The position numbers and the translations under genes were made by a program. The notes beneath the pieces are model-generated. The model did no database searches. It was not told the DNA's origin and was given only the letters and a program-made list of their open reading frames with translations. From Lachnospiraceae bacterium (GTDB lineage Bacteria; Bacillota; Clostridia; Lachnospirales; Lachnospiraceae): DNA of 39,009 nt. The stretch spans positions 1 through 39,009 of the forward strand of contig JAFZOW010000052.1 in the NCBI GenBank assembly GCA_017552715.1, in the 5' to 3' direction. Below, one piece after another: positions 8,003 through 28,000 of this stretch; position 1 is the first letter of the stretch; each line of letters begins with the position of its first letter.

Positions 8003-8302
8003 TCACTCGATATTCAAAAGCCCGCTAAGCCCGGTCATTTCAAACACTTCCATAACATTCTCCCCTACGTTCTTCACGCTAAGCTTGCCGCTCTTGCGGT
8101 AGAGGATCATGTAGAGGTTACGGATCGCACGGATACCCGCGCTGGAAACATAAGACACATCTGCCATATTAAGACTTACGGAATCGTATTTGTTCCCGGC
8201 CTCCGAAAAGACCGCCTCCGCTTCTTTGGATGTTTTGGTATCCAGACGTCCGTTGATCACGATCTCCGCCCCGTCACCGTTTTCGATCACTTTTGTTTCC
8301 AT
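8003..8302 (-). CDS. STAS-domain anti-anti-sigma factor (SpoIIAA/RsbV-like)
   Basis: A 99-residue single STAS domain. The DVSYVSSAGIR segment holds Ser53 and Ser54, where SpoIIAA/RsbV proteins are phosphorylated. In the known scheme the unphosphorylated form captures the RsbW-type kinase and so frees that kinase's target. AAGGAGG precedes the ATG, and the gene follows the kinase gene by 13 bases as last member of the long operon. No clear terminator is visible in the 27 bases before the convergent deacetylase gene. The final output of this switch is unknown because no sigma factor lies nearby. Confidence 0.9.
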   Translation of the reverse strand: METKVIENGDGAEIVINGRLDTKTSKEAEAVFSEAGNKYDSVSLNMADVSYVSSAGIRAIRNLYMILYRKSGKLSVKNVGENVMEVFEMTGLSGLLNIE

Positions 8303-8315
8303 ATTTCCTTCCTCC

Positions 8316-8759
8316 TTATAAGTTTTTCTTTATCGTCAGGATGTTGGTCCCATCCCGGTACACATAGCTCACATCGTCCATGGTCTCCTTCACCATAAGG
8401 ATACCGAAACCGCCTACCCTTTCCATGAACATCTTTCCGGAGGTATCCGCTTCCTCCGCAGCCAGTGGATCAAAGAAGCTTCCCTGATCCATAAAGGAAA
8501 GGGTAAGTACCGCCGGATCCTCCGTCAGCTCTAAAGCGACCCGTATCTTTCCCCAGAAAGGATCTTCTCCGCTATCCTCCGGCGCCTCCCCTCCCTCATA
8601 GGCATAGGAAACGATATTGACTACGATCTCTTCTACTGCCAGTTCGAGTTGAAAGCGTTTCTTTGCATCGCATTCCACCTCTTCCAGATGCTCACTGATA
8701 AAATCATTGATCTCATCCAGCGCATCATCATCAGCCACAACGATCAATTCATCTGTCAT
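8316..8759 (-). CDS. RsbW/SpoIIAB-like serine kinase (HATPase_c_2 anti-sigma type)
   Basis: A 147-residue GHKL ATPase of the anti-sigma-factor kinase type. The N-box is the ELAVEEIVVNIVSYAY segment, the G1-like box is DQGSFFDP and the G2 box is GGFGILMVKE. Such proteins phosphorylate their STAS partner and sequester a sigma factor or another target. The ATG overlaps the stop of the upstream phosphatase gene as ATGA, implying coupled translation, and the STAS gene follows directly. Kinase and antagonist are thus a standard pair; the third partner is missing from the window. Confidence 0.9.
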   Translation of the reverse strand: MTDELIVVADDDALDEINDFISEHLEEVECDAKKRFQLELAVEEIVVNIVSYAYEGGEAPEDSGEDPFWGKIRVALELTEDPAVLTLSFMDQGSFFDPLAAEEADTSGKMFMERVGGFGILMVKETMDDVSYVYRDGTNILTIKKNL

Positions 8760-10288
8760 TTTTTCTTTCCCCTGTAGATCAGCGACATCATCGTCATATC
8801 ATCAAACTGCGGATCGTTCCCGACAAACGCATTCGCAGTATCACGCACCTTCCTGCACAGTTCCCGGCTGCCCAGATCCGGATCATGGTTCAGCACCTCC
8901 AGAAGCCTTTCCGTTCCGAACTCCTCGCCGTTCTTTCCCTGTGCCTCATTCACACCATCGGTATAAAGAAAGATGCGGTCCCCGGGCTCCATGTCAAATT
9001 CGATCTCCGGAAAGATCATCCCGGGGATAAAGCCTACCGGCGGACCGTGCTTTGTTTTTTCGATCACATATTCTCCACCCTTCTCCTTTAAGCAAAGCGC
9101 AGGATAATCATGCCCGCCGTTGCAGGCCACCACATGTCCTGTACGGAGGTCCAGATAGCCCAGCCACATGGTAACAAACATCCCGGCATCGTTATTCTTT
9201 CCGATCTTCCCATCCACATGGGCCAGCACCTCCGAAGGACGCCCGCCCAGCTGGGCACGCATCTTCACCATGGCTTTGGAAACCGCCATCAGGAGAGCCG
9301 CTCCCACGCCCTTGTCGGAAACATCCGCCACCAGGAAGGCCAGATGATCCTCATCGAGCATAAAGAAATCGTAGAAATCGCCGCCCACCTCCCGAGCCGG
9401 CGTCATCGACGCATAGAGGTCATATTCGAGCACCCGGGACAGATCCGGGAATTCCTTCGGCAGCATGGAGGCCTGCATCCTGTTGGCAACGGACAGCTCC
9501 GCCTCCACCGCACTCCTCGCCCGGCTCTTTTCCAGGTTCAGCACACAGAAAAGCAACAGCAGGATCGTCATCATCGTACCCAGCTCCGGCGTAAGCCCAT
9601 AGAGCAGAGGTGCGTAGACCACGGCCGTAAACTGTGCCAGGGTGAAAGTGAACAGTATGATCAGTTGGTAGATCATAAGCTGTTTCCGGTAAAGCAGGAT
9701 AAGCCCGAAGATGATCACGGCTCCGGCAAAGGAATAGCCGTTCGACAGCAGATGAAGGCTTCCCCTTTGATATGCTCCTTCTTTATCAATATAAAAGTAA
9801 ATCGGCCTCAGCAGGTTCAACAGGCGCAACGCCACGGAAAGGATACAGCCGATCCCCATTAACGCCGTTACACCCTTCACCCGCTTTTCTCCGGCGATAT
9901 CCATATACTCCAGCACATAACGGTAGAAGATAAAAATGATCAAAGGGGAGACCAGGAAAAGGAGGGTATTGGCCGCATAGTTTAAAAGCCGTACCTCCGC
10001 ATGCCCGTCGATCACCCAGGACAGCGCATCCGTAAAAAGCCCGGTAAAGACCACCAGTACCAGCCGCAGATACCATTTTTTGAGTCCGTTCAGCTCATCC
10101 CCGTCAAAAGCGCAGGCCACGAAAAGGATCACACCCATGGCCATGGAACAGACATCCATGGAGACCTGCAGCACGGACAGACCGTCCAGCCCGGCCAGCG
10201 TATAATGGAAAAGCTCTATGAGCAGGATCGTATGCAGCAGCAGCATGCAGGCCAGGAGCAGGACAGCTCTTTTTCTTCCTTTTTTCAT
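8756..10288 (-). CDS. Membrane PP2C (SpoIIE/RsbU-type) phosphatase, copy A
   Basis: This 510-residue protein has an N-terminal membrane sensor of seven to eight helices (about 9-29, 41-61, 74-90, 103-127, 141-161, 184-201, 209-225, 235-252). A short helical linker leads to a PP2C phosphatase domain (about 285-505). The metal-binding motifs are complete: GGDFYDF, VADVSDKG, NGGHDYP, LYTDG and FDDMT. The expected reaction is removal of phosphate from the phospho-STAS protein in response to a membrane or extracellular signal. Its ATG overlaps the stop of the paralogous phosphatase gene upstream (10285-10288, ATGA), and its stop overlaps the kinase start. Confidence 0.9.
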   Translation of the reverse strand: MKKGRKRAVLLLACMLLLHTILLIELFHYTLAGLDGLSVLQVSMDVCSMAMGVILFVACAFDGDELNGLKKWYLRLVLVVFTGLFTDALSWVIDGHAEVRLLNYAANTLLFLVSPLIIFIFYRYVLEYMDIAGEKRVKGVTALMGIGCILSVALRLLNLLRPIYFYIDKEGAYQRGSLHLLSNGYSFAGAVIIFGLILLYRKQLMIYQLIILFTFTLAQFTAVVYAPLLYGLTPELGTMMTILLLLFCVLNLEKSRARSAVEAELSVANRMQASMLPKEFPDLSRVLEYDLYASMTPAREVGGDFYDFFMLDEDHLAFLVADVSDKGVGAALLMAVSKAMVKMRAQLGGRPSEVLAHVDGKIGKNNDAGMFVTMWLGYLDLRTGHVVACNGGHDYPALCLKEKGGEYVIEKTKHGPPVGFIPGMIFPEIEFDMEPGDRIFLYTDGVNEAQGKNGEEFGTERLLEVLNHDPDLGSRELCRKVRDTANAFVGNDPQFDDMTMMSLIYRGKKK

Positions 10289-11856
10289 TCCCCGCCCCCT
10301 TCCCTGCGATATTGGGTAAAGCTGAAGCCCAGCATCGTGATATCATCGGCCTGCTGCGCTTCTCCCTGCCCGCTCAGAACACTCTGCCAGATCCCCTCGC
10401 AGAGTTCTTCGTTCGTATGGTCGCTATAACGGTTCAGGGTCTCCAGCAGTCCTTCATTACCGCTTCTCCCCTTCTCCGAAAGAGCATCCACCAGCCCGTC
10501 CGTGTACAGGAAGATACGCTCTCCCGGCATAAAGACCATCTCACGGTCCGCATAAACACTGTCCGCCGCCTTACCCAGCGGGGTCGTTTCCGCCTCATCG
10601 TATAAGAAGAATTTCGGCCCGAGATCCTTTTTCAGGAAAGCCGGTCTGTTCTTCCCCGCACTGCAGCATACCAGCTCACCGGAACGTGTATCCAGGATGC
10701 CCAGCCACACATCCATGGTAAGGTTCAGTCCCTTCTGTTCGACCAGCCGGCGGTTCACATCCCCCAGCACCTCGGCAGGGGCTGCGCCCATCTCTGCATA
10801 CATGCTGATCATGGCTCTGGCAACGGACATAAAGAGTGCGGCGCTGACACCTTTCCCTGCCACATCTCCCACCAGGAAGGCAAAATGATCCTCATCCGTA
10901 CGGAAGAAATCATAGAAATCCCCGCCCACTTCTCCGCAGGGCTTCATCAGGGCATAGATATCGAATTCCGCCGCCTCGGCAATATCCGCATCGAGCCTGG
11001 CCAGCGAGCCTTCCTGTATGCGCTTTGCTGTATCCAGCTCCTTCCGGGTCAGCTCTCCCTTACGGTTCCGGTTCACGTTCAGAAGGATGTACATGATGAA
11101 AAGGATCAGGAAGGAAACGGCATAGCCGATAAAGATCGGCAGCACTCCTCCGAAAATGATGCCCAGGGATGCAAAGGACAGCGCATAAAACAGAGCCGCG
11201 ATGATCTGATTTTTCCGCAGTCGTTTCCGGAAGCGGATCACAAAGAAGAAAACGGAGAGCGAAACAAAAAGAGGATAGATATTGTCCAGCGCATACAGCT
11301 CCGTCTCCCTGTAAACCCCCTCTTCATCCACCCAAAAGAACAGGGGATAAAAAAGATTGGACAGGCCTGCCAGAATGCCGGCGATCATCAGGATACGGGA
11401 CAGTTTGCGCAGGAACTCCACCGCCCTCTCGCCCTTTACCTGCAGGGTACAGACCATATATTCCATTGAACGCCCGTAGATCAGATAATTGCCGGCCGAC
11501 TGGATCGCCACGATCCCTGTCTGGAAAAGCCGTGTCTGCGGCAGCCCGTCCAGGAAATAAGAGATGGTATCCATCGTCATGCAGGCGAAATTAAAGAAGA
11601 TCACCTGCATGAAAAGCCGTCTTTCCTCATCCTTCTGCATCCCGTCCAGCGTACAACACAGGAAGAGGACTACGGAAGCGAGCATGGCGATCATACTGTA
11701 GCCGATGCTGAAGAGCATGTGATGCTCTACATGATCCATGCCGTATCTTGCGATCACAACAAACACGCAGGCAAAGAGCGCAAGCATCAGGATAAAGGCC
11801 ATGATCCGGTGCCGTGCGCTTTTTATATCCGCTTTCAATCCCTGACTTTCAGTCAT
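10285..11856 (-). CDS. Membrane PP2C (SpoIIE/RsbU-type) phosphatase, copy B
   Basis: A 523-residue paralogue of the next phosphatase gene, with the same plan: about seven or eight membrane helices in residues 18-255, a linker, then PP2C (about 290-520). GGDFYDF, VGDVAGKG, LYTDG and ADDIT motifs are present, but the usual Ala-Gly-His is Ala-Gly-Lys here, so one motif diverges. The two membrane halves are clearly related (matching charge and helix patterns, a WVDEEGVY / YIDKEGAY loop in both) yet quite different in sequence, as expected for paralogues sensing different signals. The ribosome-binding site is weak, and 74 bases separate it from the gene upstream, the widest gap inside the operon. 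Confidence 0.88.
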   Translation of the reverse strand: MTESQGLKADIKSARHRIMAFILMLALFACVFVVIARYGMDHVEHHMLFSIGYSMIAMLASVVLFLCCTLDGMQKDEERRLFMQVIFFNFACMTMDTISYFLDGLPQTRLFQTGIVAIQSAGNYLIYGRSMEYMVCTLQVKGERAVEFLRKLSRILMIAGILAGLSNLFYPLFFWVDEEGVYRETELYALDNIYPLFVSLSVFFFVIRFRKRLRKNQIIAALFYALSFASLGIIFGGVLPIFIGYAVSFLILFIMYILLNVNRNRKGELTRKELDTAKRIQEGSLARLDADIAEAAEFDIYALMKPCGEVGGDFYDFFRTDEDHFAFLVGDVAGKGVSAALFMSVARAMISMYAEMGAAPAEVLGDVNRRLVEQKGLNLTMDVWLGILDTRSGELVCCSAGKNRPAFLKKDLGPKFFLYDEAETTPLGKAADSVYADREMVFMPGERIFLYTDGLVDALSEKGRSGNEGLLETLNRYSDHTNEELCEGIWQSVLSGQGEAQQADDITMLGFSFTQYRREGGGE

Positions 11857-11930
11857 TTAAACTCTGCACTTTCCTCTCTCATCCGCCCACCGGAAATACT
11901 TTTCATGGTAAGCGTCACGTACATCCGCGT

Positions 11931-13139
11931 TTAGCTGTTCCCATATGCATCCCGTGCGCGGCTCAGTTCCTGATCCAGGTCCGGATTGCTGTTGGGGACA
12001 AAGCCGGAATCGGCCTTGTTCTCCTTCATGTACTCCGCAAATTCCGCAGACTTTTGGCTGCGCTCCGTAAGCTCCTTTTCCAGGCGCTCGATCTCGTCCG
12101 CATCGGGATCATCCTTCCCATATGCGCTCACCAGATCGCGTTTCACGCTGATCAGAGCCAGATCATTGTCATACCCCTCATCGATATAGGCTTCCTCATC
12201 GAAGCCGTCAAAGCCATCCTCCTCCAGGCGCTCCGCATCCTGCTTCAGCATAGCCCTTTCCGCGGCAAATGTCGCACTTTCGTCTTTTTTCTTCTGTGAG
12301 GTTTTGGTATCGTAGATCCGCTTTTTTTCCACCCCCACGACATTGCCCTTTTCGTCCAGCTTATCCACGTAGGAGATCCTGCCGAAGGTACGATCAAGGA
12401 AGCTCAGCGTCCCCCGGAAATATACATTCGGTTTCCATCCCACGTGTTTCCTCCAGAGCGGCTGGAAGGTGGCAAGCTTTATGAGATTTCCGACCGTAAG
12501 GCCGACTATAGTGGCAAGTCCCGCAACAACGAGTTTTCCTGCACCGGAGGTTTGGAAGATCTTCTTCTGTTCAGCCTGATTTGCTTCATTCGCATCGTTG
12601 TAGATCATCTCCGACATATCGGTTCCGTCCTCACGCTGCCGCCCGCTGATATAAGCATCCCTTTCCTGTGTGACCTTTTCGCGCAGGGCCATCACCTCTT
12701 CCAGGCGCTGTTTTCCCTTTCCCCATTTAAAGATACGGAAGCGTCCCGAACAGTATTTGTTGCAGGCTGCGATCAGATCATCCAGCGCCTTTCCCCTGCT
12801 TATATTCATCTCCTCATGGTTATGATAGACATTCAGGGCATCCCGGACGGCCTGCATCTTTTCGCTGTCGTCCTTCTGCCTGGCGATAAACTTTTTATCC
12901 AGTCCGATATATGCAGGCTCCCCGGGCACAGGTCCGCCAAGCGGAGCCACTCCATCCTTCACCGTAACTTCTTTAAAGCCCTGCAGGATGAGCTTTTCCG
13001 TCTTTTCCTCCCGGATCTCGCCCTCGTTAAGCTGTTCCTGCTGCATAAGGCTGCTGCTGAAAAGGGATTCCTCCTTATGCTCCTGAAGCTGTTTCTGTTC
13101 CTGTAACTTTTTTAACTTTTCCAGACTCTGCGTACCCAT
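11931..13139 (-). CDS. Single-TM charged protein with Cys-x3-Cys 'YC' segment, unknown function
   Basis: Unrecognised 402-residue protein. It opens with a Gln/Lys/Glu-rich coiled coil (about 5-50). A segment follows with Cys126, Tyr129, Cys130 and a downstream Gly142-x2-Arg145-x3-Val149 pattern. One hydrophobic Gly/Val/Leu helix (about 198-220) may be a membrane anchor, and the acidic/charged C-terminal tail (about 270-400) is predicted helical. The Cys-Tyr-Cys segment closely parallels residues 94-159 of the giant ABC1 kinase-like protein of the same operon (Cys138, Tyr141, Cys142, Gly152, Arg155, Val159), which suggests a shared interaction domain. GAGGAGAGG precedes the ATG; the previous gene ends 20 bases upstream. 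Function unknown; a scaffold or substrate of the system is a guess. Confidence 0.75.
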   Translation of the reverse strand: MGTQSLEKLKKLQEQKQLQEHKEESLFSSSLMQQEQLNEGEIREEKTEKLILQGFKEVTVKDGVAPLGGPVPGEPAYIGLDKKFIARQKDDSEKMQAVRDALNVYHNHEEMNISRGKALDDLIAACNKYCSGRFRIFKWGKGKQRLEEVMALREKVTQERDAYISGRQREDGTDMSEMIYNDANEANQAEQKKIFQTSGAGKLVVAGLATIVGLTVGNLIKLATFQPLWRKHVGWKPNVYFRGTLSFLDRTFGRISYVDKLDEKGNVVGVEKKRIYDTKTSQKKKDESATFAAERAMLKQDAERLEEDGFDGFDEEAYIDEGYDNDLALISVKRDLVSAYGKDDPDADEIERLEKELTERSQKSAEFAEYMKENKADSGFVPNSNPDLDQELSRARDAYGNS

Positions 13140-13159
13140 ATGATCCTCTCCTCTATCCC

Positions 13160-14440
13160 TTATTCGGTAGCTTCCAACAGCTTCTCGATATCGTCCTCAT
13201 CAAAGTCCATTTCCCTTAGCGGAGGATTCAGCGTACCGCTTAACAGGTATTGCCCCAGCTGCAGCCTGCAGAATTTATCCAGGATCTCCCCCAGCTCTTC
13301 CGCTTCCACCGGTATCATAAGCTCCGTGTTCTCATCGCCCGAGCGGATAGCGCTGTCAATAAAGGCCCAGATCAGACAGGGCAGGAATTTCTCCCTCTCC
13401 GGGGCGGAAGCCAGATATTCGACTCTCAGCATTCCGGAAGCCGTTCTGTGAGCCAGGAGCAGCGCCCGTATATCCGTCCGGCTCCCCGCATAGAAGGAGA
13501 GCTCCTTATCGATATATTCCCCCGGAACCTCCTTAAGATAGCCGTCATAATCCAGACGGCCGAGCGCATGCCGGATAAACCTCACTTTCTCCGTTTCAAG
13601 AAAGTTCGCAAGAGGCTCGGATCCACGGCTCAGGGCCGAGATCCTTTTCCGTTCCGTGATATCGCCGACCCTTATGACCGCTTCGGGACTCAGTCCCGAT
13701 CCCAGTTCGAACTGCCAGGTGCCGAAGAAATAGGCAAGGATCTCCTTTCCCTCTGCGTTTCCCGGGAATTCTGCGGAGATGTTCTCCACACCGCTCTGTA
13801 TCAGCTGTGCCAGCAGCTCCCCCATCAGGAAATCCGCAACGCTTCTCTCCCGGAACTCTTCGTTCACAAAGAGCCAGTCGATCCGAAGTATCGGCTTGTT
13901 CAGAAAGGGGTCCATATCGATATACCAGGCGATGGCCCCGACACCGTAAACATTTCCGTTCCGCGTACGGAGAGCCCCCAGAGCGGAACGTCTTCCGGAA
14001 AGGATGTCTTCATACAGATCCACGGACAGGACCGTTTTAAAAAGATCGACATTATTCTTCGTGACGGGGCTGATCATGGGCCCGATGATCTTTTCAAACT
14101 CCCGCCGGCAGTCAGCCGCGGCAGCAAGCTGCTTTTTCCCGTATCTTGAAAACGGATGAAAACGCTTTGCCATATTGTCAAGAATGCTTATCTTCAGCGC
14201 ATAAATCTTCTCTACCCGCTCCCGATCCTTATTCTTCCTGTAATAGTGGACATACTCTCTTATATGGGAATCCGTAGAGACCAGCATCTCGACCGCGGCT
14301 CTCTGCTCCTCCACCATATCTTCCATGCCAAAGAGCCCGCTAAGCTCTTTCTCCGCTTCCCTGCTCTTTTCCCGGTCGATCCCAAGGGTCTCCTCTACTG
14401 AAAGAACTCCGGCTTCCCTGTATTCATACTGATTATCCAT
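13160..14440 (-). CDS. Tandem GNAT-like protein, probably catalytically degenerate
   Basis: A 426-residue soluble protein. Residues about 155-255 look like a GNAT fold: an aromatic-rich strand (AIAWYIDMDPF), then RIDWLFVNEEFRERSVADFLMGEL in the position of acetyl-CoA motif A, and a FGTWQFEL end strand. The Arg/Gln-x-x-Gly-x-Gly/Ala pyrophosphate loop is replaced by a Glu-Arg-Ser-Val-Ala-Asp sequence. A second, weaker GNAT-like half follows (about 285-410). The N-terminal 130 residues are helical and charged and contain no known domain. Its ATG directly abuts the stop of the upstream gene (TAAATG), with GGAGGGG just before it. It may act as a binding or sensory module instead of an acetyltransferase (inference). 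Confidence 0.65.
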   Translation of the reverse strand: MDNQYEYREAGVLSVEETLGIDREKSREAEKELSGLFGMEDMVEEQRAAVEMLVSTDSHIREYVHYYRKNKDRERVEKIYALKISILDNMAKRFHPFSRYGKKQLAAAADCRREFEKIIGPMISPVTKNNVDLFKTVLSVDLYEDILSGRRSALGALRTRNGNVYGVGAIAWYIDMDPFLNKPILRIDWLFVNEEFRERSVADFLMGELLAQLIQSGVENISAEFPGNAEGKEILAYFFGTWQFELGSGLSPEAVIRVGDITERKRISALSRGSEPLANFLETEKVRFIRHALGRLDYDGYLKEVPGEYIDKELSFYAGSRTDIRALLLAHRTASGMLRVEYLASAPEREKFLPCLIWAFIDSAIRSGDENTELMIPVEAEELGEILDKFCRLQLGQYLLSGTLNPPLREMDFDEDDIEKLLEATE

Positions 14441-15304
14441 TTACCCCTCCCTCATTCTTTCCCAGGCATATTTTTCGTTGATATTCTCGCGATAGGCAGC
14501 GAGAGGTGCTTCATCTCCGGCCTCTCCGTCCTCGATGGTCTCACCGTTGTCCTTCGCCGCCTTCGTGGCATGAACGATCACGGTCTTATCCGTCATTTCA
14601 TATTCCTTGTTCAGCAGGCGTCTAAGCAGGGGGATCACAGCGGAATTCATCGTCAGCATGCTGATCGCAGGATACTCTTCCGCCAGATCCTCCTCCGTCA
14701 GTCCTTCCACGAATCTCTGACAGGTCGAAAGGATATACTGCGGAAATTTGGAAGAGAAGCCGAGAAGCAGCTCCACAAGGATCTCCCCTTCCTGTCGGGA
14801 GGCGAGCAGTATCGAAACCAGCTTATATTCCTTGTCGTAGCAGACGGCACTCAGGTTCTCATCCATCTGCGCAAAGCGCTCTTCGCTGATGGGGAAATGC
14901 AGCTGCTCCAGAAATTCCTTTACTTCATCAAGCTGAAAGCTCATCAGCTCGTAGAAGCTGTAGGTCTCGATATCCGGGAACTTCATGCGCAGGGATTTCT
15001 GCACACCGGCAGAGTTTAACAGATCCACTGTGTTGATCGAGATGATCTTATCCCTCTCTTTCAGTTGAAAGCCCGACTCCTCATATACGGCGCTCTGCTC
15101 CCCGGGGATGTCACAGAAGAGCTCACTTAAGCCCCGGCGCGCGGCTTCGCTTTCCGCCGCGGAAAGGAGGGCCTTATCGTCTTCCGGGAAAAGTGTCAGC
15201 AGGCGTGCCGCCCCTTCCCCTTCCTCACGGAGAGTCGCCGAGCCTCCCTCCCCGTTATACAGGCAGATATCACCGTTATCCTGCAGTTTTCTTATATAAC
15301 TCAC
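14441..15304 (-). CDS. Degenerate GNAT-like protein
   Basis: A 287-residue protein, read from the GTG at 15304: GAGGAGG lies about 7 bases before this GTG, and the GTGA sequence overlaps the stop of the phosphatase gene by four bases. An in-frame ATG further upstream would overlap the phosphatase gene by 28 bases and lacks the site. Residues 30-90 resemble the second half of a GNAT fold (a YEESGFQLKERDKI-type end strand). Residues about 115-260 resemble a second GNAT-like fold, with VSILLASRQ and VELLLGFSSK strands. No acetyl-CoA loop is visible in either. Its closest partner in style is the tandem GNAT-like protein encoded next. Function unknown. Confidence 0.6.
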   Translation of the reverse strand: MSYIRKLQDNGDICLYNGEGGSATLREEGEGAARLLTLFPEDDKALLSAAESEAARRGLSELFCDIPGEQSAVYEESGFQLKERDKIISINTVDLLNSAGVQKSLRMKFPDIETYSFYELMSFQLDEVKEFLEQLHFPISEERFAQMDENLSAVCYDKEYKLVSILLASRQEGEILVELLLGFSSKFPQYILSTCQRFVEGLTEEDLAEEYPAISMLTMNSAVIPLLRRLLNKEYEMTDKTVIVHATKAAKDNGETIEDGEAGDEAPLAAYRENINEKYAWERMREG

Positions 15305-16062
15305 GATTCCCCTCCTCTCTTTACGCATAAGAAGGTGGCATCATCCTTCAGTTTTGCATCCCCGACGAATTCAAAGAAATCATCCTGCAGAGTTCCGACG
15401 ATCTCCTCCGCATTTTCTTCTTCACATCTTTTCAGCGTCTCCTGCATCATCTCCTCGGTAAAGCCGGCCTTGGTCACGCCGTCGGTATAGAGCAGCAGGC
15501 GGTCTCCGGGGTTCAGCCTTATCTCGTAGCTTTCATAAGAGATATTCTCCATGACCGCCAGCAGGTAGGAAGAGCTTTCGTTTTCGCAGCGGCCCGCTCC
15601 GCCGGCTCTTGCAAGGATCGGCGGCTCATGCCCCGCATTCACGGCAGTGATGATGCCTGTGGAAAGTTCATAGACGCCGTACCAGGCCGAAAGGCAGAGG
15701 TTATCCTCATTGGCCGCGGCCAGACGGTTGTTTACGACCCCGATCAGCTCCGCGGGCGTAAAGCCCATGGAAAGCTCACCGGAAAGATAGAGCTTGAAGG
15801 CGATCATGTACAGGGCCGCCGCATCTCCGCCGTCAAAGATATCGGCAACTACTATGCCGATATGATCGTTATCGATACGGAAGAAATCAAAGTAATCCCC
15901 GCCCACCTTGGCCAGGCTGATCTGATCCCCGTAGATATCGATCTGATCCAGATCGGGAAAGAAGGGATACTGATCCGGCATCAGATGAAATTTCAGCGAT
16001 ACCGTCATGGCCAGCTGACGCTGTAAATGCTCCAGTTCCTTCATCAATTCTTCTTTTTCCAT
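15301..16062 (-). CDS. Soluble PP2C (SpoIIE/RsbU-type) phosphatase
   Basis: A 253-residue protein: a short N-terminal coiled coil (about 1-25) and a complete PP2C domain. GGDYFDF, VVADIFDGG, NAGHEPP, LYTDG and KDDAT motifs are visible. The usual Gly-Lys-Gly after the second metal motif is Asp-Gly-Gly, a divergence from its two membrane paralogues. There is no sensory domain, so input may come from protein partners such as the neighbouring GNAT-like proteins. I placed the start at 16062, where GAGGAGGTGTCA precedes ATG; the longer frame would overlap the GNAT gene by 90 bases. It probably dephosphorylates the STAS protein or targets of the ABC1-type kinase (inference). Confidence 0.85.
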   Translation of the reverse strand: MEKEELMKELEHLQRQLAMTVSLKFHLMPDQYPFFPDLDQIDIYGDQISLAKVGGDYFDFFRIDNDHIGIVVADIFDGGDAAALYMIAFKLYLSGELSMGFTPAELIGVVNNRLAAANEDNLCLSAWYGVYELSTGIITAVNAGHEPPILARAGGAGRCENESSSYLLAVMENISYESYEIRLNPGDRLLLYTDGVTKAGFTEEMMQETLKRCEEENAEEIVGTLQDDFFEFVGDAKLKDDATFLCVKRGGES

Positions 16063-16073
16063 TGACACCTCCT

Positions 16074-16613
16074 CTATTCTTCTTCTGTGAACAGCCCCTC
16101 TTTTTCCAGCAGTCCTTCTTTTGTGAGCAGTTCCAGCTGCTTGCTGTACGGAAGTTCTTTCCACTTATTCTTTTCTTTCCGATAATTATCTGCGGATGTC
16201 GTCATGGCCCACGCCGACTTATTCTGCCGGTTCATCTGTTTGTCCGGCTCAAAGCCCATTTCACTCAGATACCTGTCCGCTCCCATGCAGACCCCGTTCC
16301 ATTCCGATCCTTTTGAGATCAACACGGTGATCAGATGACAGCCGGCCTCAGCGGCGATCCTTATCGCCTCGTTCAGCAATGCTTCTCCGGCACCCTTCTG
16401 TCGTTCCTCCGGAAGCACCAGCAGCCAGTGGATAAAAAGCCTCGCCTGTGTCAGCTCCGCAACCAGTAATCCGCAGGGGATATCCTCTTCCCCGGACTCT
16501 CTTGCCGACACAAGCGCAAACCATCCGGGCAGGGCTGTATTCTTCAAGCTGTCAAAGGGATCCATTCCCGCAAACAGTTCCCTTTGTGAATACTCAAGGC
16601 TCACTACTTTCAT
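16074..16613 (-). CDS. GNAT family N-acetyltransferase
   Basis: A 179-residue protein with a more orthodox GNAT core than its two neighbours: HWLLVLPEERQKGAGEALL (about 66-84) contains the Gln/Arg-x-x-Gly-x-Gly/Ala acetyl-CoA loop as RQKGAG, followed by the EAGCHLITVLIS strand and an end strand YLSEMGFEPDK. The C-terminal 40 residues are charged and helical, beyond the normal fold. The family moves an acetyl group from acetyl-CoA to an amine; the target is unknown. It lies 43 bases after the giant kinase gene and 11 bases before the soluble phosphatase. Confidence 0.8.
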   Translation of the reverse strand: MKVVSLEYSQRELFAGMDPFDSLKNTALPGWFALVSARESGEEDIPCGLLVAELTQARLFIHWLLVLPEERQKGAGEALLNEAIRIAAEAGCHLITVLISKGSEWNGVCMGADRYLSEMGFEPDKQMNRQNKSAWAMTTSADNYRKEKNKWKELPYSKQLELLTKEGLLEKEGLFTEEE

Positions 16614-16656
16614 ATCCGTTCATTCTCCTTTTCTTTCCCGTCCTTAAGGATCCCGA

Positions 16657-19600
16657 TCACATCATCTTCGGTACATATTTTAAGCCCGAGAAGCCCAGCT
16701 TCTTTATGGATGCCAACTTATTCCCGAGGATCACCTTTGCCATAACATCCGGGAAGTTCTCGTTTTCTTTATCATCGATGACCTGTTGGGCTCTTTTTTC
16801 GGAAAATTGCGCAAACTCCTTACTTTTATCACCGGATACTTTCAGACGATGGATCAGGGCCTCTTTATAGATCTCACAAAACTTATTCAGCTCCTTCTCC
16901 GTATCCTCCGGTGTTGCGCCGCTTTCTTTCTTCTTAACATATTGATCAAAGGCCGCCCTCATCTCTTCGCCCATGTTCTCTTTATCCGCGAACCAGCGAT
17001 CCAGCTGTTTATATACCGTTTCCGCGCCTCCGCCGATCCTTTCGACCGTAGCAAGACGTGCCTTGAACATACTGAAGAGCATATCGCCATCCACATCATC
17101 ACTTTCCTGAAGCTCCGTCAGCTTCTCTTGCACCGATTTGTAATAGCAGTGATCCGGTTCTTCCGTCTCATCCCGCATCGACGCATCTTCCTGTATCATA
17201 TACTCTACATCGAGACTGAAGTTTTTCTGTTCCATATCAACACCGACCTTATCCAGTTTTTTAAACGTTTTATTAACGTCCCGGATCAGTTTGTTGAGCT
17301 CCTCTATGGTATTCTGAAGCCGGAGCTGTCCGGCGGAGAAATTCGCCACCACCGGCGGAAGTTCAAAGCCAAGCTCCTGCGCCTTGATCAGCGCGGCTCC
17401 GATCCGCTGTCCCGAAGCCTGGGAGTTTCCGTAACTCATGATATCGTTGAATACAGCCCGCAGCTCCTCCTTTTTGGCCTGAAATACATCTTCCGGTGTA
17501 TTCTCCAGCAGCTTATGGAAGCCCTCCAGGAAACCGTCTCCGTCTCCGCTGGCCACGGCTGCCAGCATACGCATGATCTCCTTCTGCTGCTCATCAGCCA
17601 GCTTGGTAACGTTACCGAAATCGATCAGGGTAGCTCCTTCGTCGTTGATCATGATATTTCCGGCATGCAGATCCCCGTGATAAAAGCCGGCCTTGTATAT
17701 TCCTTCCGTAACCCAGAGCTCGGCCACATCCAGAAGATGGACACGGCGTTTGTACAGACGTTCCAGTTCCTCCTTCAGCCTTGCACGGATACCGTCCAGC
17801 TCTTTAATGTTCTCAGCGTTAAAGCCCAGCGTCGGCTCGTCGTCCACATTCATCTTTACGACCGGTTCTCCGTTCTCATCCTTCTTGATCTCCTTGGTTT
17901 CCGGATCCTTCTCGTAAACATAAAACTTCTTCAGGGAATCATCCAGATAAGAGCGCACATCCTTAAAGTATCGGTCAACGGAGGTACCCTCCGCCTTTTC
18001 CAGCACCAGTGCGTTCATGGTGGGCTCGATCATATTGTTCACCTTCATAGCTTTGATATTGGTGAACTTTCCGTCATAGACCGAGCCTGCCTCGCAGTTC
18101 TTCGCTTCCAGGGTCAGGTCCATTTCCTCCAGTATGGTATTTAACTGTCCTTCATAGGTATGGAACATACCCTCGCCGGCCTCCTTCGCGCAGCGGAGCA
18201 TGATCTCCTTCTCGCGCATCATACGGTTACGGACATCCGGCTTCAGGAGCTTGACCACGACCTCCTTGCCCTCCTTCGGCAGCGTCGGCCCGTACATCCT
18301 GCACAGCAGGGCCTGCCCCACGGAGGCGGAGCCTAAAGATTTTTCCATCTCGATCTTCGTGACCGTTCCCTTTGAACGCTCCACCATACCCAGCAGCTGG
18401 GCTTTGATGATCTCCTCCGGGATCGGTGCCAGATTGGAACGCATATCATCCACAGCCACTTCCAGCTCCTGCGGGAGGGAAGCGCCGGCCATGCCCTGGA
18501 GCATCTTCTGCAGAAGAGGGCCCGCCCCCTTTAAGAGGCCGCCGAGATACTGTCCCATCTCTTTATTCTTTTGCTTTTCCGTAGCGTTTTCCGTAAGGCT
18601 TGAGGGCTTCATGTTACGGATCGCAGACGCAAACATCGAGCGCTTATCCAGGGAGCTTACACTCTTAAAGTATTCATTGAAGACTTTCTTGATAAAAGCA
18701 CCCTGGCCTTTATCACTGTTGGCGGCCTCGGCGATCATCTTTTCCAGCGCCTTGGCATCCTTCTTTTCCTCTTTTTCTTCTTCCCCTTCTTTCTTTTTTT
18801 CTTCTTTCTTTCCGCTTACCACTTCCTCCGAAGATCTGGTAAAGGTTTTCTGTACGTTCTCCATAAAGGAATCCGACGCACTGTCCACCTGCTCCTCCAG
18901 TTTTTTCAGACCTTCAACCATATCCTCCGAATTCTCGGCAAGCAGCTCCGTGATCTTTCCCGCGACTGTCTGCGCGCTGCGCTTACCGATCGCCGCCGCC
19001 CCTCTTGCGGTTGCAAGCTTCATCGTCCGGACAAAGGCAAATTCATTGGGATTCTCGGGGATCTGCTCCTGTATCGTATCCTCGATCTTCTTATCGATAA
19101 AGTCCGTGATATCCTTCATGGACTTTTTCAGCTTTTCCTTAAGCTCTACGGCATCTTCCCCAAACTGCGAAAGGGGCAGCTTATCCAGCATTCCTTCCAG
19201 GATCGAGGGTTTGGAAGTATCAAGGCGGTAAAGGTCGGCTACCAGCTTACCAAGGATAGGCGCATGTTTTTTCAGCATCTTAGCCATACGCGCGCCGGGC
19301 TCCGCTTTTGTCTCGTCTGCCATCCAGGTCTCCGAGGAATAGATCATATCCGCCAGGAATTCTCTGATCGCCGCCTCATCCTCCGACCACTTCTTGTCAC
19401 CCGCATCTTCCTCTTTTTTCTGCTGCCTGATCGTAACCTTCTGATCGACCGTCTCCGCTTCCTTTGACTTCAGCAGCTCCATATTCTCCTGTATATTGAT
19501 CTGCTGCCCGTCGGCTTCGTAGGCCTGTATCACTTCCTTAAGTTCGTCAAGATAAAGACCCGATCCGCTCATGGCCTGCTTGGCCAGGCCAAGGATCACT

Positions 19601-20721
19601 TTGGTGGAGACATTACTCATATCCGCAGCGGTCAGCTGCCCTGCGGAAAGCTTCTCCAGGAAATGGACGCAGAGATTACGAACCCGCAGATTCTCGGCCA
19701 TATCTGCCGTATCGAAGGCCTTATCCAGAGACTCGATCATACTGACCACATTTTTCTGCCCGTATTCTTCGGCATTCTCCATGATGTGGCTCTCGATGCG
19801 GTCCGCGATCAGCTCCGCCGTCATCTCCAGAGGGAGCTGCTCCGTTCCCTGTATGATATAGAGCGTTCCGTCCGATTTCTGCAAAAGCCGCACATCCATA
19901 CCGTTAAAGTTGATGTTTTTGGCGCACACCTTGCCTTCGGGGAAAGAGCGCAGCTCATCCCGCAGCTTAAGATACGGGGTTTTCGGATCCTGTCCTTTTT
20001 TCTTCACGATATGCTTTTTCGGATCCTCGATCATATTAAGGATGTAGCGCATCTTTTTGGAAGTACTGTTCATCTTCACCGGCTTTTTTTCTTTGGCCTT
20101 TTCTTCCGTCTTTGCGCCACCGGCCACACGCACATTGGAGAGACCTGCGTACTGCGCCAGCGTCGTCCCTTCCGCGATCGCATCCCGCTCCAGACTCAGG
20201 GACAGCTCGTTCATCTCCATGCGGAGATTTTCCAGCATCCGGGATACCATTTCCTTACGGGCGATACCGGTCTTGGTGGAGGGATTCTTCACATTGCAGT
20301 AATGCTCACAGGCCGAGATCGCAAGATTATAGGAAACCTGCATTTCCTCGATCAGTTCGGGAGTCATGACCGCATCCCGGCGTTCGAGAAGGAACGCTTC
20401 CACATTGGCAACGGAAGTCTTTACCTCGCTCATCTCTTCACTGTCGCCGAAGGTTTTCTCCTTATTGATCAGGAGATGTGCGGTATTTCTGCTGCTGCGC
20501 GTCTTCAGGGCCACAAGCTGCTCCCGGGACAGCTGCAGCTCCGCGGAGGACTCCAGGGAAAGAAGGCTTTCGATCTGCGTCTGCTCCTGCTGCGTCTTTT
20601 CTATATCAAAAAAACTCCGTTCTTCGCCTTTCTTCGTCTTGTCAAGATTCGTAGCGAAACGAACGGATCGCTTCAAAAGCTCTTCTGTTTTTTCTTTTGT
20701 CATCATCGGATTATTATCCAT
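16657..20721 (-). CDS. Giant ABC1/UbiB-type kinase-like protein with ~680-residue N-terminal extension
   Basis: A 1354-residue protein, about two to three times the usual length of ABC1/ADCK/UbiB proteins. The kinase-like core spans about 725-1150. It has an Ala/Ser-rich loop LGSASVGQ (about 795-803), Lys824 in VVVKLLKP, a downstream EMDLTLEAKNCE helix, the catalytic-loop-like HGDLHAGN (His1015, Asp1017, Asn1022) and Asp1034 of DFG. The family KxGQ motif is replaced by a KMLQ sequence near residue 738. The N-terminal extension is mostly helical, includes Cys138/Tyr141/Cys142 shared with the 402-residue protein, and ends in a Lys/Glu-rich linker (about 634-657). No membrane helix is evident, unlike UbiB. 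AAGGAG lies 7 bases before the ATG. It leads the ten-gene operon. Substrate (protein, lipid or nucleotide) is unknown. Confidence 0.85.
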   Translation of the reverse strand: MDNNPMMTKEKTEELLKRSVRFATNLDKTKKGEERSFFDIEKTQQEQTQIESLLSLESSAELQLSREQLVALKTRSSRNTAHLLINKEKTFGDSEEMSEVKTSVANVEAFLLERRDAVMTPELIEEMQVSYNLAISACEHYCNVKNPSTKTGIARKEMVSRMLENLRMEMNELSLSLERDAIAEGTTLAQYAGLSNVRVAGGAKTEEKAKEKKPVKMNSTSKKMRYILNMIEDPKKHIVKKKGQDPKTPYLKLRDELRSFPEGKVCAKNINFNGMDVRLLQKSDGTLYIIQGTEQLPLEMTAELIADRIESHIMENAEEYGQKNVVSMIESLDKAFDTADMAENLRVRNLCVHFLEKLSAGQLTAADMSNVSTKVILGLAKQAMSGSGLYLDELKEVIQAYEADGQQINIQENMELLKSKEAETVDQKVTIRQQKKEEDAGDKKWSEDEAAIREFLADMIYSSETWMADETKAEPGARMAKMLKKHAPILGKLVADLYRLDTSKPSILEGMLDKLPLSQFGEDAVELKEKLKKSMKDITDFIDKKIEDTIQEQIPENPNEFAFVRTMKLATARGAAAIGKRSAQTVAGKITELLAENSEDMVEGLKKLEEQVDSASDSFMENVQKTFTRSSEEVVSGKKEEKKKEGEEEKEEKKDAKALEKMIAEAANSDKGQGAFIKKVFNEYFKSVSSLDKRSMFASAIRNMKPSSLTENATEKQKNKEMGQYLGGLLKGAGPLLQKMLQGMAGASLPQELEVAVDDMRSNLAPIPEEIIKAQLLGMVERSKGTVTKIEMEKSLGSASVGQALLCRMYGPTLPKEGKEVVVKLLKPDVRNRMMREKEIMLRCAKEAGEGMFHTYEGQLNTILEEMDLTLEAKNCEAGSVYDGKFTNIKAMKVNNMIEPTMNALVLEKAEGTSVDRYFKDVRSYLDDSLKKFYVYEKDPETKEIKKDENGEPVVKMNVDDEPTLGFNAENIKELDGIRARLKEELERLYKRRVHLLDVAELWVTEGIYKAGFYHGDLHAGNIMINDEGATLIDFGNVTKLADEQQKEIMRMLAAVASGDGDGFLEGFHKLLENTPEDVFQAKKEELRAVFNDIMSYGNSQASGQRIGAALIKAQELGFELPPVVANFSAGQLRLQNTIEELNKLIRDVNKTFKKLDKVGVDMEQKNFSLDVEYMIQEDASMRDETEEPDHCYYKSVQEKLTELQESDDVDGDMLFSMFKARLATVERIGGGAETVYKQLDRWFADKENMGEEMRAAFDQYVKKKESGATPEDTEKELNKFCEIYKEALIHRLKVSGDKSKEFAQFSEKRAQQVIDDKENENFPDVMAKVILGNKLASIKKLGFSGLKYVPKMM

Positions 20722-25057: not shown

Positions 25058-28000
25058 CTAAAAATCCGAATCCTTTTCGTTGACGCTCATATGATGGGTA
25101 CCGGCTACTACCAGCAGCTGGTCCTTTGCCACGCCCAGCGCCATGGGTTCGCCCACACGCATCACGATCCCCACGGTGGTCTCGATGAGTCGCAGGGTAG
25201 CATCTTCCTTCATGCTCCCCATGGCTACGGCCCGGTTACCTTCCACCAGTATGTCCAGATTGGACTTGGATACGGAGATATCCGGCTTCCCGCCTTCGCA
25301 GCCCAGCATATAAAGGGTACGTCCGTTACCCTTCAGATGAATGCTGGCACAGTCGACCCTTATGCTGCCGCCGGTCTCTTCCGCATTGCCGATGGCGATG
25401 ACCGTGCTGCCGCTGCCCACGATCTCCATGGACACATCCCGGATCTCGATATTCTGACGGCCGTGAAAGGCTCCTACGGCCATACCGTGGGCACTACGCA
25501 CCTCGATATTCACATCCGCTTCCGTAATGGAAATGGGTACTTCTCCCTTATAGCTGCCGATACATACGCATTCGGTACCGGCCATGATCAGATCCAGGCG
25601 GCCGGAGGAGATACGTATACCGTCACCGGACTGGCAGCGTCCGCCGCCTATGCCCACACAGTGATTCCCTTCGGCATTCAGCGCCAGTATACCCGTCATG
25701 GCACATTCGATATGCCCGAAGGTGGCATCATAAGCCGCACCGAGGCAGTATGCATCGGAAAGCACCGGCGTGATGGACAGGTTCCCGTCCCCTTCCAGCC
25801 GCAGGGATGAATCCTCTGGCACATGGATGCCGTTGCCTTCCAGTTCGTTATTGCCTTCCAGGATCAGCGTAAGGCTGGCCCCGCGTCCGATATCGATGCA
25901 GGGGAAGTGATCGTTATCTCCCAGCCGCACATTGCTGATGCGCAGCGTACAGTTGCAGTTTTCCTTGATCTTGATGTTCAGGCCCGCCATAAAATCGGGA
26001 TTCCCGTGAAGGGTCAGCTCCGGCTGGGACAGGATGATGGAGGTATAACGCTCCATGGCCAGATGCATCAGGAAGAGCTCCTTCTCCCGGTTCACCAGAT
26101 AAACCTTCTTCCGCAGATCGTGGGCGCCTTCAAAGTTGGCCCGGACGATCTCGTCGCGGATGGTGGAAGAAATGGTCTGGCTCAGCGCAAAGCCGGGACG
26201 GGCAGTGTAATAACCCTGCACAAAATCTACGCCCATACGTACCACGGCCGAAAGTTCGCGGCTGGTCTCCACCCCTTCCGCCAGGGCCTGGAAGCCGTTA
26301 TCATGGGCAAATTCGATGATGGTCTTAACAAAATGCTGTTTCTTGGGATCTTCCTGCACGTTCTCGATGAGGGTGCGGTCGATCTTCACATAATTGGGAA
26401 GGAACTTCAGCAGATTGGACATATTGGAATAGCCCGTGCCGAAATCGTCCACGGCCACTTCAAAATGATCCGCCGTGCTGCGGGCCCGGAGTATATCCGC
26501 CGTGCAGCTTTCGAATTCCGTCTCCTCGGTGATCTCCACCACCAGATGGGAGAAGAGATGCCCGTAGCGCTGCTTCAGTTTCCCGTAATCCTCATCCGTA
26601 AGATAATGTCCGGGGATGGAATTGATGAAGATCTTCTTATCTTCCAGATCCTCTTTAAAATGATCCACCTGCCGCAGCACATTGCTGAAGGTGGACAGCT
26701 CGATCTCGTAGAGGCGCTCGTCCATGCCCGCATACTTCAATATGGTAAGGGGCGAAAGCTTGGGCTCCTGCTGGGTGCGCATCAGCGCCTCGTAAGCCAC
26801 CACCTCGCCGGTACGGGCGGATACGATGGGCTGGAAGGCATACAGGAAGGCGTTTTCGTCCATGATATCCCGGACCACGCCGTGTTCCTGCAAATCATCA
26901 TTATCGCTGGCAAGCAGGCCGCTTCCCCTGCGGGAGGAACGACTGTCCTTGAGCAGACGTTTCTTGGTAAAGGCCTCGTCCAGTATGTCCTCCACCCCGG
27001 TCTTGGCATTGGGGGTGATGGTAAGGCAGCTGATATTGGCCTCCAGGGTATATTCCTTGCCGGAGATGTGATTATAGGTCTGGACACGGTTCTTCACGTG
27101 GTCCGAGAATTCCTCGCTCACATCCTTCATATCGTCCGCCGGCATCAATACGATGAATTCGTCCGAACCCAGACGGGCCGCCAGCATTCCGGGACGCAGG
27201 CTGTCCAGAAGGATCTGGGCCAGCATCTGTATGGCGATATCCCCCTCCAGATGACCGTAGATCTCGTTGATGTTCCCCAGGCGGTCCAGATCCACGCAGA
27301 CCGTGCAGATGCGCTGTCCGGTGACAAGAGCATGGGAAAGGAGCTCCTTGGCCTCCCGCATGAAGCCCACGCTGTTGCGCAGCCCGGTGAGCACATCCGT
27401 CTCCTGCAGGCGCTGCACATTCTCGTTGGCATTCACCAGTTCGTTATTGGCAAAGGAAAGCTTCTTTTCCGTGATATAACGGCTGATCATCAGATCCAGT
27501 ACCACTGCCAGAAGCTCCAGGGCCCTGCACACCTCATCCAGCTCGTGAGAGGAATGGATCAGGTATCCGAAATAGGCCTGACGGCAATGGACGGGAATGA
27601 CTGTGGTAAACTCAAATTCGTCAAGGGTTTCCCTGGCATCGGGGAAGAACTCGCTTAAGGGATAGGTATCCCAGGTAGACGCAGGCTGGCGGGAATCCGC
27701 CAGTACGTAGAATTTTTCATAACTGTTGGGGGCCGGCCCCCGGTCCGCAAAGATATCCTGCAGGAAGCTGTCACGCATACAGATAAAGCTGTCCGTAAGA
27801 AGCAGTTCCCCCATGGCCTCGCTGATCTCTTCCACATGATCCGCAGCCAGGAATTTTTCCGAAACCCCGAAAAGCTTCCCCATAGTCACATCGATCAGGT
27901 GGGAGGAACGCAGCTTCCATTCCTTCGCTTCTTTCGTGATCTTTTCCTGTACAGGCAGATCATCCAGCACCCTAAGGGGGATATCCAGCTCTTTAAGCCT

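What the first reader, a model, noticed from the sequence alone, without database searches (positions are those of the whole stretch)
8003..20721. Ten-gene signalling operon combining a giant ABC1-type kinase, partner-switching proteins and GNAT-like proteins
Ten same-strand genes, several joined by ATGA, GTGA or TAAATG overlaps, encode one ABC1/UbiB-type kinase of 1354 residues, three PP2C phosphatases, an RsbW-like kinase, a STAS antagonist, three GNAT or GNAT-like proteins and a one-TM protein. Partner switching (RsbU/P-RsbV-RsbW) is known; its linkage with an ABC1-type kinase and degenerate GNATs is not something I know to be described. I infer one regulatory machine with several signal inputs and a second phosphorylation arm.
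Basis: partly seen in the sequence, partly recalled or inferred. Interest (0 to 1): 0.88.

Follow-up and report, generated by a model that had tools for sequence, protein, structure and literature searches.

The report
Giant UbiB kinases linked to injection systems
In gut bacteria of the Lachnospiraceae, a ten-gene cluster built around a very large UbiB-type kinase looks like an accessory cargo-and-control cluster of a syringe-like contractile injection system, which would make this kinase family a new kind of injected effector.

Summary
The ten-gene cluster is real and its gene set recurs in other Lachnospiraceae. It is best read as an accessory effector-and-control cluster of an extracellular contractile injection system (eCIS), not a free-standing signalling machine. 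(1) The kinase is a UbiB/COQ8-fold protein with conserved N- and C-terminal modules and many larger relatives. (2) The same genome carries an eCIS locus with nearly all core parts, plus GNAT-like, PP2C, RsbW and STAS genes beside toxin-like proteins. (3) All 7 genus genomes with the kinase core are among the 12 of 35 with a contractile sheath; in other genera Pvc16_N is in 7 of 9 kinase carriers and 2 of 18 non-carriers. (4) In four loci kinases sit inside or beside eCIS genes. (5) The kinase's N-terminal module also precedes a calpain domain in one protein and an ADP-ribosyltransferase domain in another. GNAT-like proteins are recurrent neighbours; adaptor or modifier is my guess. The 'one-TM protein' matches only the first third of a 1280-residue relative. 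Against: the window has no eCIS gene, only 4 of 82 loci show clear eCIS linkage, the full switch is in 4 of 82, and no loading or injection is shown.

The parts
16657..20721 (-). Giant UbiB/ABC1-family kinase, 1354 aa: N-terminal module (about residues 82-209), helical middle, UbiB kinase core (about 590-1180), conserved C-terminal module (about 1191-1354)
16074..16613 (-). GNAT-179, keeps the acyl-CoA motif (RQKGAG); 43 bp after the kinase
   Evidence: Pfam Acetyltransf_1 E 3e-8; motif
15301..16164 (-). Soluble SpoIIE-type PP2C phosphatase, 287 aa as called; likely start about 16062
   Evidence: PF07228 E 9e-35; no hydrophobic segment
14441..15328 (-). GNL295, degenerate GNAT-like protein without motif A
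   Evidence: no Pfam hit itself; 3 of 6 aligned relatives hit GNAT; profile matches PDB GNATs, best E 4e-4; motif lost
13160..14440 (-). GNL426, degenerate GNAT-like protein (RERSVA in place of RxxGxG)
   Evidence: Pfam GNAT E 0.013, below cut-off; 24 of 31 aligned family members hit PF00583; motif lost
11931..13139 (-). 402-aa protein with the N-terminal module and one hydrophobic segment; matches residues 1-401 of a 1280-aa relative at 71%
   Evidence: module; BLAST 286/402 identical to the N-terminus of L162 ORF 10329-14171
10285..11856 (-). Membrane SpoIIE-type PP2C phosphatase, 523 aa
   Evidence: PF07228 E 3e-39; six hydrophobic segments
8756..10288 (-). Membrane SpoIIE-type PP2C phosphatase, 510 aa
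   Evidence: PF07228 E 4e-44; seven hydrophobic segments
8316..8759 (-). RsbW-like HATPase switch kinase, 147 aa
   Evidence: PF13581 E 2e-19; 64% identical to L092, 34% to the RsbW of the own eCIS locus
8003..8302 (-). STAS antagonist (RsbV-like), 99 aa, with a serine in the column of the RsbV phosphosite (site recalled)
   Evidence: PF01740 E 5e-11; alignment to the anti-sigma-B antagonist 6m36; 69% identical to L092, 36% and 38% to STAS genes of two eCIS loci
20846..20874 (-). Promoter-like site (TTCACA, 17 nt, TATAAT, TG before the second hexamer) upstream of the kinase
   Evidence: 0 in 40 simulations; consensus match only

Best explanation
The cluster is an accessory effector-and-control cluster of the eCIS that this bacterium encodes elsewhere. 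The giant UbiB-family kinase is the cargo: a soluble protein with a hydrophilic N-terminus and a shared N-terminal module, loaded into the injection particle and acting by phosphorylation or ATP hydrolysis in the target cell, most plausibly another gut microbe or a ciliate. The GNAT-like proteins are dedicated partners that keep the large proteins loadable or inactive, or modify them. The two membrane PP2Cs and the soluble PP2C act on the STAS protein, which the RsbW-like kinase phosphorylates; this switch controls when effectors are made, loaded or released, as a homologous set in the main eCIS locus would. Shown by sequence: the UbiB fold and kept catalytic residues, the shared module, recurrent GNAT-like neighbours, co-occurrence and, in some genomes, physical linkage with eCIS. 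Inferred: cargo status, loading, target, GNAT role, who phosphorylates whom, and what the switch controls.
For: Own genome: an eCIS locus at G000:C58 about 8.4-74.7 kb, on one strand apart from one called ORF, with sheath, T4_gp19 tube, two CIS_tube proteins, gp25, spike OB domain, Baseplate_J, Pvc16, two AAA+ ATPases and eCIS_core, plus RsbW, PP2C, STAS, four GNAT-like genes and Ntox11, calpain, ADP-ribosyltransferase and hydrolase proteins. Genus: sheath in 12 of 35 genomes, including all 7 with the kinase core (Fisher 1e-4). N-module: the 12 genomes with best E <= 1e-12 are the same 12 (cut-off chosen afterwards). Other genera: Pvc16_N in 7 of 9 kinase genomes against 2 of 18 without. Linkage: G015:C50 (= L122) and L059 have kinases just upstream of the eCIS operon on the same strand; L124 has kinase-GNAT between eCIS AAA+/ABC genes and STAS-PP2C; L102 has two kinases with GNATs, STAS and two eCIS_core-like genes. 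Module on other enzymes: calpain, ADP-ribosyltransferase, one protein each. N-termini: kinase-cluster ORFs KD35 median -1.05 (n=80) against -0.09 for other genes (n=433) and -0.26 for GNAT-like genes (n=113), in line with published eCIS cargo (PMC11297309, passages). Regulators: 12 of 22 PP2C genes in 8 genomes, all of them sheath carriers, lie within 10 kb of a GNAT-like gene, 0.96 expected. GNAT-like gene next downstream of the kinase in 43 of 65 evaluable loci.
Against: No eCIS gene was recognised in the 39-kb window, and the one eCIS_core match of the genome is on C58; the contig ends, so the distance is unknown. Of 82 kinase loci only 4 show clear eCIS linkage within the fetched flanks; 3 more (L060, L127, L129) have AAA+ matches, which may be unrelated. 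PP2C is in 16, STAS in 11, RsbW in 5 and all three in 4 of 82, so the switch is not a constant part. Two kinase genomes (G193, G361) gave no Pvc16_N match. Seven sheathless genomes have weaker N-module matches (best E 1e-8 to 2e-4), so the module may not be exclusive to eCIS genomes. In L160 and L161 the module lies at residues 475-747, not at the N-terminus. The published low-aromatic feature of cargo N-termini was not seen: 0.54 aromatic residues in positions 2-8 of the kinases against 0.62 in other genes. The low KD35 may reflect only charged, helical proteins. Whether GNAT-like genes are absent from sheathless genomes was not tested. No UbiB protein is known to me as an injected effector. 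Relatedness of genomes inflates the statistics.
Confidence: 0.62

Rival explanations
1. The giant UbiB kinases serve the eCIS inside the producing cell as assembly factor, ATP-driven chaperone or regulator, and are not cargo.
For: Co-occurrence and linkage with eCIS fit equally. Kinase plus PP2C plus STAS in one locus invites a phosphorylation role. UbiB proteins are otherwise housekeeping ATPases (recalled).
Against: Copy number and length vary widely, with four kinase ORFs and one module-only ORF in a row in G015:C50. 5 of the 12 sheath genomes gave no kinase core match, so it is not needed for assembly. The N-module is shared with a calpain and an ADP-ribosyltransferase protein.
Confidence: 0.18
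2. One reading: a free-standing intracellular signalling machine joining partner switching to a second phosphorylation arm.
For: The partner-switching genes match their families well and most of the set recurs in L092.
Against: Most kinase loci lack the full switch within the fetched flanks (4 of 82 have all three), while the kinase tracks eCIS and shares its module with toxin-like proteins.
Confidence: 0.1
3. The effectors act in the producing cell or its kin, as in the developmental cell death linked to the Streptomyces eCIS, with the switch timing self-lysis.
For: The relatives are Lachnospiraceae by title, a Gram-positive-type lineage (recalled), where particle release would need lysis; Streptomyces precedent PMC10020575 (start of abstract, passages).
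Against: Nothing here shows self-targeting; calpain and ADP-ribosyltransferase domains suggest eukaryotic targets (inference).
Confidence: 0.07
4. The window cluster is a decaying satellite: the 402-aa protein is a truncated relic and two GNAT-like proteins have lost their motif, so it does little today. This does not exclude the best explanation for its relatives.
For: The 402-aa protein matches only residues 1-401 of a 1280-aa relative; motif A lost in two of three GNAT proteins; the kinase is on the short side of its family.
Against: All ten frames are open, the kinase keeps its catalytic residues and C-terminal module, RsbW and STAS are 64% and 69% identical to L092, and 14 of 31 aligned GNAT-like proteins, most of them from other genomes, lack the motif too.
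Confidence: 0.08

Closest known systems
Extracellular contractile injection systems and their associated toxins (PMC8213781, PMC11297309; passages only)
   Same: The own genome has most core Pfams listed there (sheath, T4_gp19 tube, gp25, Baseplate_J, Pvc16/DUF4255 (equation recalled), AAA, DUF4157/eCIS_core; the GPD hub only below its cut-off; no PAAR match seen); toxin-like genes in the locus; large cargo candidates with hydrophilic N-termini and long linkers
   Different: Cargo candidates include giant UbiB kinases, also in satellite clusters away from the main locus, with GNAT-like partners and partner-switching genes; the passages I saw name RfaH, GerE and BTAD regulators and histidine kinases, not STAS, RsbW or PP2C
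UbiB / ABC1 / COQ8 atypical kinases
   Same: Fold (COQ8A best), HxDLHxGN and DxGN motifs, VVIK lysine, A-rich loop (motif names recalled)
   Different: Up to 2740 aa with added N- and C-terminal modules; KxGQ-like stretch reads KMLQ (K and Q invariant, G replaced); accessory and multi-copy, in eCIS-bearing genomes
RsbU/RsbV/RsbW (SigB, SpoIIA) partner switching
   Same: PP2C phosphatases, HATPase switch kinase, STAS with the serine kept
   Different: No sigma factor among the ten genes; homologous genes lie in an eCIS locus
RtxC/HlyC toxin-activating acyltransferases (GNAT fold; PMC8339906, passages)
   Same: A GNAT-fold protein encoded beside a toxin and dedicated to it; the described ApxIC also lacks the usual CoA-binding elements
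   Different: No sequence relation was tested; here GNAT-like proteins, some degenerate, accompany several unrelated effector types

Membership tests
UbiB/ABC1 kinase family | ABC1 profile and COQ8-like fold | tested here: met
UbiB/ABC1 kinase family | Catalytic HxDLHxGN, DxG, nucleotide-binding lysine | tested here: met
   H426, D428, L429, H430, G432, N433, D445, G447, K235 (core numbering) invariant over 17 copies and 23 copies
UbiB/ABC1 kinase family | KxGQ motif (recalled) | tested here: inconclusive
   K150 and Q153 invariant, the G position hydrophobic; equation with UbiB KxGQ made by eye
eCIS-associated toxin/effector | Encoded in or beside an eCIS locus | tested here: inconclusive
   True for relatives in G015:C50 (= L122), L059, L124, L102; no eCIS gene recognised in the window, whose contig ends on both sides
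eCIS-associated toxin/effector | Hydrophilic N-terminus without signal peptide | tested here: met
   Window kinase KD35 -1.47, no aromatic residue in positions 2-8, no hydrophobic segment; the family as a whole shows no drop in aromatic residues
eCIS-associated toxin/effector | DUF4157/eCIS_core in the protein or a neighbouring gene (common, not universal) | tested here: not met
   The single PF13699 match of the genome is on C58, not in the window
eCIS-associated toxin/effector | Loaded into particles and toxic on delivery | not testable with these tools
   needs experiments
Partner-switching module (RsbU/V/W) | STAS with phospho-acceptor serine, HATPase switch kinase, SpoIIE-type PP2C | tested here: met
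   phosphosite position recalled
Partner-switching module (RsbU/V/W) | A target sigma factor encoded with the module | tested here: not met
   none of the ten proteins matches a sigma factor family
GNAT acetyltransferases (GNL426, GNL295) | Acyl-CoA motif [QR]xxGx[GA] | tested here: not met
   lost in both; kept in GNAT-179; kept in 17 of 31 and 4 of 6 aligned proteins, the window's included
eCIS in the own genome (C58) | Sheath, tube, baseplate (gp25, Baseplate_J), spike OB domain, Pvc16, AAA+ ATPase and eCIS_core in one locus | tested here: met
   all over their Pfam cut-offs
eCIS in the own genome (C58) | GPD hub and PAAR spike tip | tested here: inconclusive
   Phage_GPD E 8e-5, 22.5 bits, below its cut-off of 30.1; no PAAR match among 30 of 47 called ORFs scanned

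The most novel reading that the evidence does not exclude
Gut and rumen Lachnospiraceae inject giant UbiB/COQ8-family kinases into other cells through an eCIS: a new class of injected kinase effector, with dedicated GNAT-fold partners that chaperone or acylate each effector and an RsbU/V/W-type switch that controls production or firing.
Probability: 0.45. Interest if true: 0.9.

Novelty: new variant of a known kind. Interest (0 to 1): 0.78.

Why it matters
If right, the UbiB family, known from coenzyme Q biology, has been turned into cargo of an injection machine in gut bacteria of ruminants. It would also give eCIS research two testable ideas: partner switching as a control circuit, and GNAT-fold proteins as general effector partners. 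Other gut microbes and ciliates would be natural target candidates. The shared N-terminal module gives a sequence handle for finding further cargo among large proteins that have no annotation.

Tried and rejected

Considered and rejected: chance adjacency (the set recurs); anti-phage defence; a prophage in place of an eCIS (Pvc16, AAA+, eCIS_core and toxin-like proteins present; no capsid, portal or terminase match among 30 of the 47 ORFs that I called at C58:8440-74695; 17 were not scanned against Pfam).

Limits: the PP2C-GNAT distance count used 73 of 102 GNAT-like matches, those of about 52 bits or more, in eight genomes picked because they have the kinase or a match to it. The 18 non-carriers are the first ones listed, not a random draw. 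Alignments A3 and A4 hold 31 hand-chosen proteins (BLAST cluster of 73) and 6 (of 9). The BLAST cluster of kinase ORFs has 97 members, 88 with the kinase core. RsbW in 5 loci includes a doubtful opposite-strand ORF in L069; MEM6 counts include PP2C proteins with a similar membrane part. Named loci L063, L072, L083, L087, L091, L120, L122 and L125 have the contig lengths of contigs in genus genomes, so the two sets overlap, and several named loci come from one genome. One search printed nothing and was not used. My gene calls are longest-ORF calls and can err at starts.
Full report
What is there. The window is a whole contig (G000:C78) of a 3.4-Mb draft genome in 134 contigs. Ten minus-strand genes at 8003-20721 encode, in transcription order, a 1354-aa ABC1/UbiB kinase, a GNAT protein (179 aa), a soluble PP2C (287), two degenerate GNAT-like proteins (295, 426), a 402-aa protein with one hydrophobic segment, two membrane PP2Cs (523, 510), an RsbW-like kinase (147) and a STAS protein (99). 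Direct Pfam support for the 426-aa protein is below the cut-off and absent for the 295- and 402-aa proteins. The only 11-of-12 promoter-like site lies just before the kinase. The gene upstream of the kinase (20809-23274) runs on the same strand, so the unit may extend further; that was not resolved.

The module leads out of the kinase. It is also in the 402-aa window protein and in three other proteins of the genome. One of these (C92) carries a calpain domain; a module protein in G015 carries an ADP-ribosyltransferase domain. The other module proteins scanned had no family over its cut-off. The 402-aa protein is 71% identical to the first 401 residues of a 1280-aa protein in G011 and ends there, so it is a short form or a truncated relic.

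GNAT-like partners. In 82 loci (79 plus the window and two own-genome loci) a GNAT-like gene is next downstream of the kinase in 43 of 65 evaluable cases (at least 1.5 kb of flank), next upstream in 21 of 58, and somewhere in the locus in 65 of 82. The family is GNAT by homology, but 17 of 31 and 4 of 6 aligned members keep the acyl-CoA motif and the rest do not. GNAT-like genes also neighbour non-kinase large proteins. Whether they are absent from genomes without a sheath was not tested.

The switch. PP2C is in 16, STAS in 11, RsbW in 5 of 82 loci, all three in L070, L092, L126 and the window. L092 has nearly the window order: kinase, GNAT, GNL295, soluble PP2C, two PP2Cs, RsbW, STAS; GNL295 and the soluble PP2C are swapped, GNL426 and the 402-aa gene are missing. 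In eight sheath-carrying genomes 12 of 22 SpoIIE-type PP2C genes lie within 10 kb of a GNAT-like gene, 0.96 expected from genome coverage. In the own genome five of six are in such places: three here, one on C116, one on C58; the sixth is on C73.

The injection system. C58 of the same genome holds, over about 66 kb and on one strand apart from one called ORF, sheath, tube, two CIS_tube proteins, gp25, spike OB domain, Baseplate_J, Pvc16, two AAA+ ATPases and eCIS_core, with RsbW, PP2C, STAS, four GNAT-like genes and proteins with Ntox11, calpain, ADP-ribosyltransferase and hydrolase domains (30 of 47 called ORFs scanned against Pfam). The hub match is below its cut-off and no PAAR match was seen. 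The sheath is in 12 of 35 genus genomes; all 7 kinase genomes are among them, and none of the 23 sheathless genomes gave a kinase match. The 12 sheath genomes are also exactly those with a best N-module E of 1e-12 or lower, a cut-off I chose afterwards; at 1e-3 the module is in 19 of 35, including seven sheathless genomes with weaker matches. Outside the genus, Pvc16_N is in 7 of 9 kinase genomes and 2 of 18 others; the same call also included G000 and G017 (present) and G030 (absent). In G015:C50 (= L122) four kinase ORFs and one module-only ORF lie directly upstream of the eCIS operon; L059 has kinase-GNAT upstream of it; L124 has kinase-GNAT between AAA+/ABC genes and STAS-PP2C; L102 has two kinases, STAS and two eCIS_core-like genes. 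In the other 78 loci no clear eCIS gene was seen within the fetched flanks, which are at most 10 kb for the named loci; 3 of them have AAA+ matches.

How it most likely works. The kinase is proposed as eCIS cargo. Cluster ORFs rarely have a hydrophobic segment (2 of 97) and have hydrophilic N-termini (median KD35 -1.05 against -0.09), as reported for eCIS cargo (PMC11297309, passages); the reported lack of aromatic residues was not seen (0.54 against 0.62). The passages of PMC8213781 describe linkers of occasionally more than 1000 aa between DUF4157 and toxin domains and list the eCIS core families; in them I saw RfaH, GerE and BTAD regulators and histidine kinases, not STAS or RsbW. The GNAT role is inferred; a precedent is the GNAT-fold RtxC/HlyC toxin acyltransferases, one of which lacks the usual CoA elements (PMC8339906, passages). 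What the switch controls is inferred from its homologues inside the eCIS locus.

Novelty. Among the papers listed by searches (capped lists from a held open-licence library that lacks most subscription papers) none was, by its title and the start of its abstract, about UbiB proteins as eCIS cargo, partner switching with eCIS, or eCIS in rumen Lachnospiraceae. The eCIS papers that I looked into by term had no occurrence of Lachnospira in PMC8213781, PMC11297309 and PMC12923769. Parts are known; the combination appears new.

Caveats. The window copy is not next to an eCIS as assembled. Genomes are related, so the Fisher values (1e-4 for kinase and sheath, 1e-9 for the module with a cut-off chosen afterwards and 6e-5 at 1e-3, 1e-3 for other genera) overstate independence. 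No experiment supports loading or injection.

Noticed in passing
G000:C58:8440-74695 (L173, L174, L190, L191): eCIS locus of the same genome with several toxin-like proteins and its own RsbW, PP2C and STAS.
   Followed up: yes
L191:4219-7511: The eCIS operon also encodes a protein matching the OEP (TolC-like) family (E 2e-8) and a MORN-repeat protein (E 2e-15), unexpected in this lineage; relatives in L122 and L059.
   Followed up: partly
G015:C50:55812-74601 (L050, L051, L122): Tandem array of five ORFs of the giant-kinase cluster (1659, 930, 612, 1737 and 1234 aa, the last cut by the contig end), the 612-aa one with the module but no kinase core.
   Followed up: partly
L031:8079-9104 and others (MEM6 group): About 345-aa membrane proteins recur near the kinases (17 of 82 loci, PP2C proteins with a similar membrane part included); their C-terminal part looks by eye like a degenerate GGDEF domain.
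   Followed up: no
G000:C116:75598-85686 (L166:598-10686): A 3362-aa protein without any Pfam match, directly after a kinase and two GNAT-like genes; a 3366-aa relative in G011:C76 and, by eye, one in G023:C27 cut by the fetched edge.
   Followed up: partly
window 25058-28249: 1063-aa protein that looks by eye like a GGDEF-EAL protein with an unusual C-terminal repeat region; not scanned.
   Followed up: no
window 37027-38861: A small protein and an ATPase-like protein overlapping by one base, by eye resembling RloB/RloA-type pairs, in the low-GC end of the contig (0.43 at 36001-38000); not scanned.
   Followed up: no
G193, G361: Kinase-positive genomes without a Pvc16_N match; exceptions to the eCIS link or assembly gaps.
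   Followed up: no
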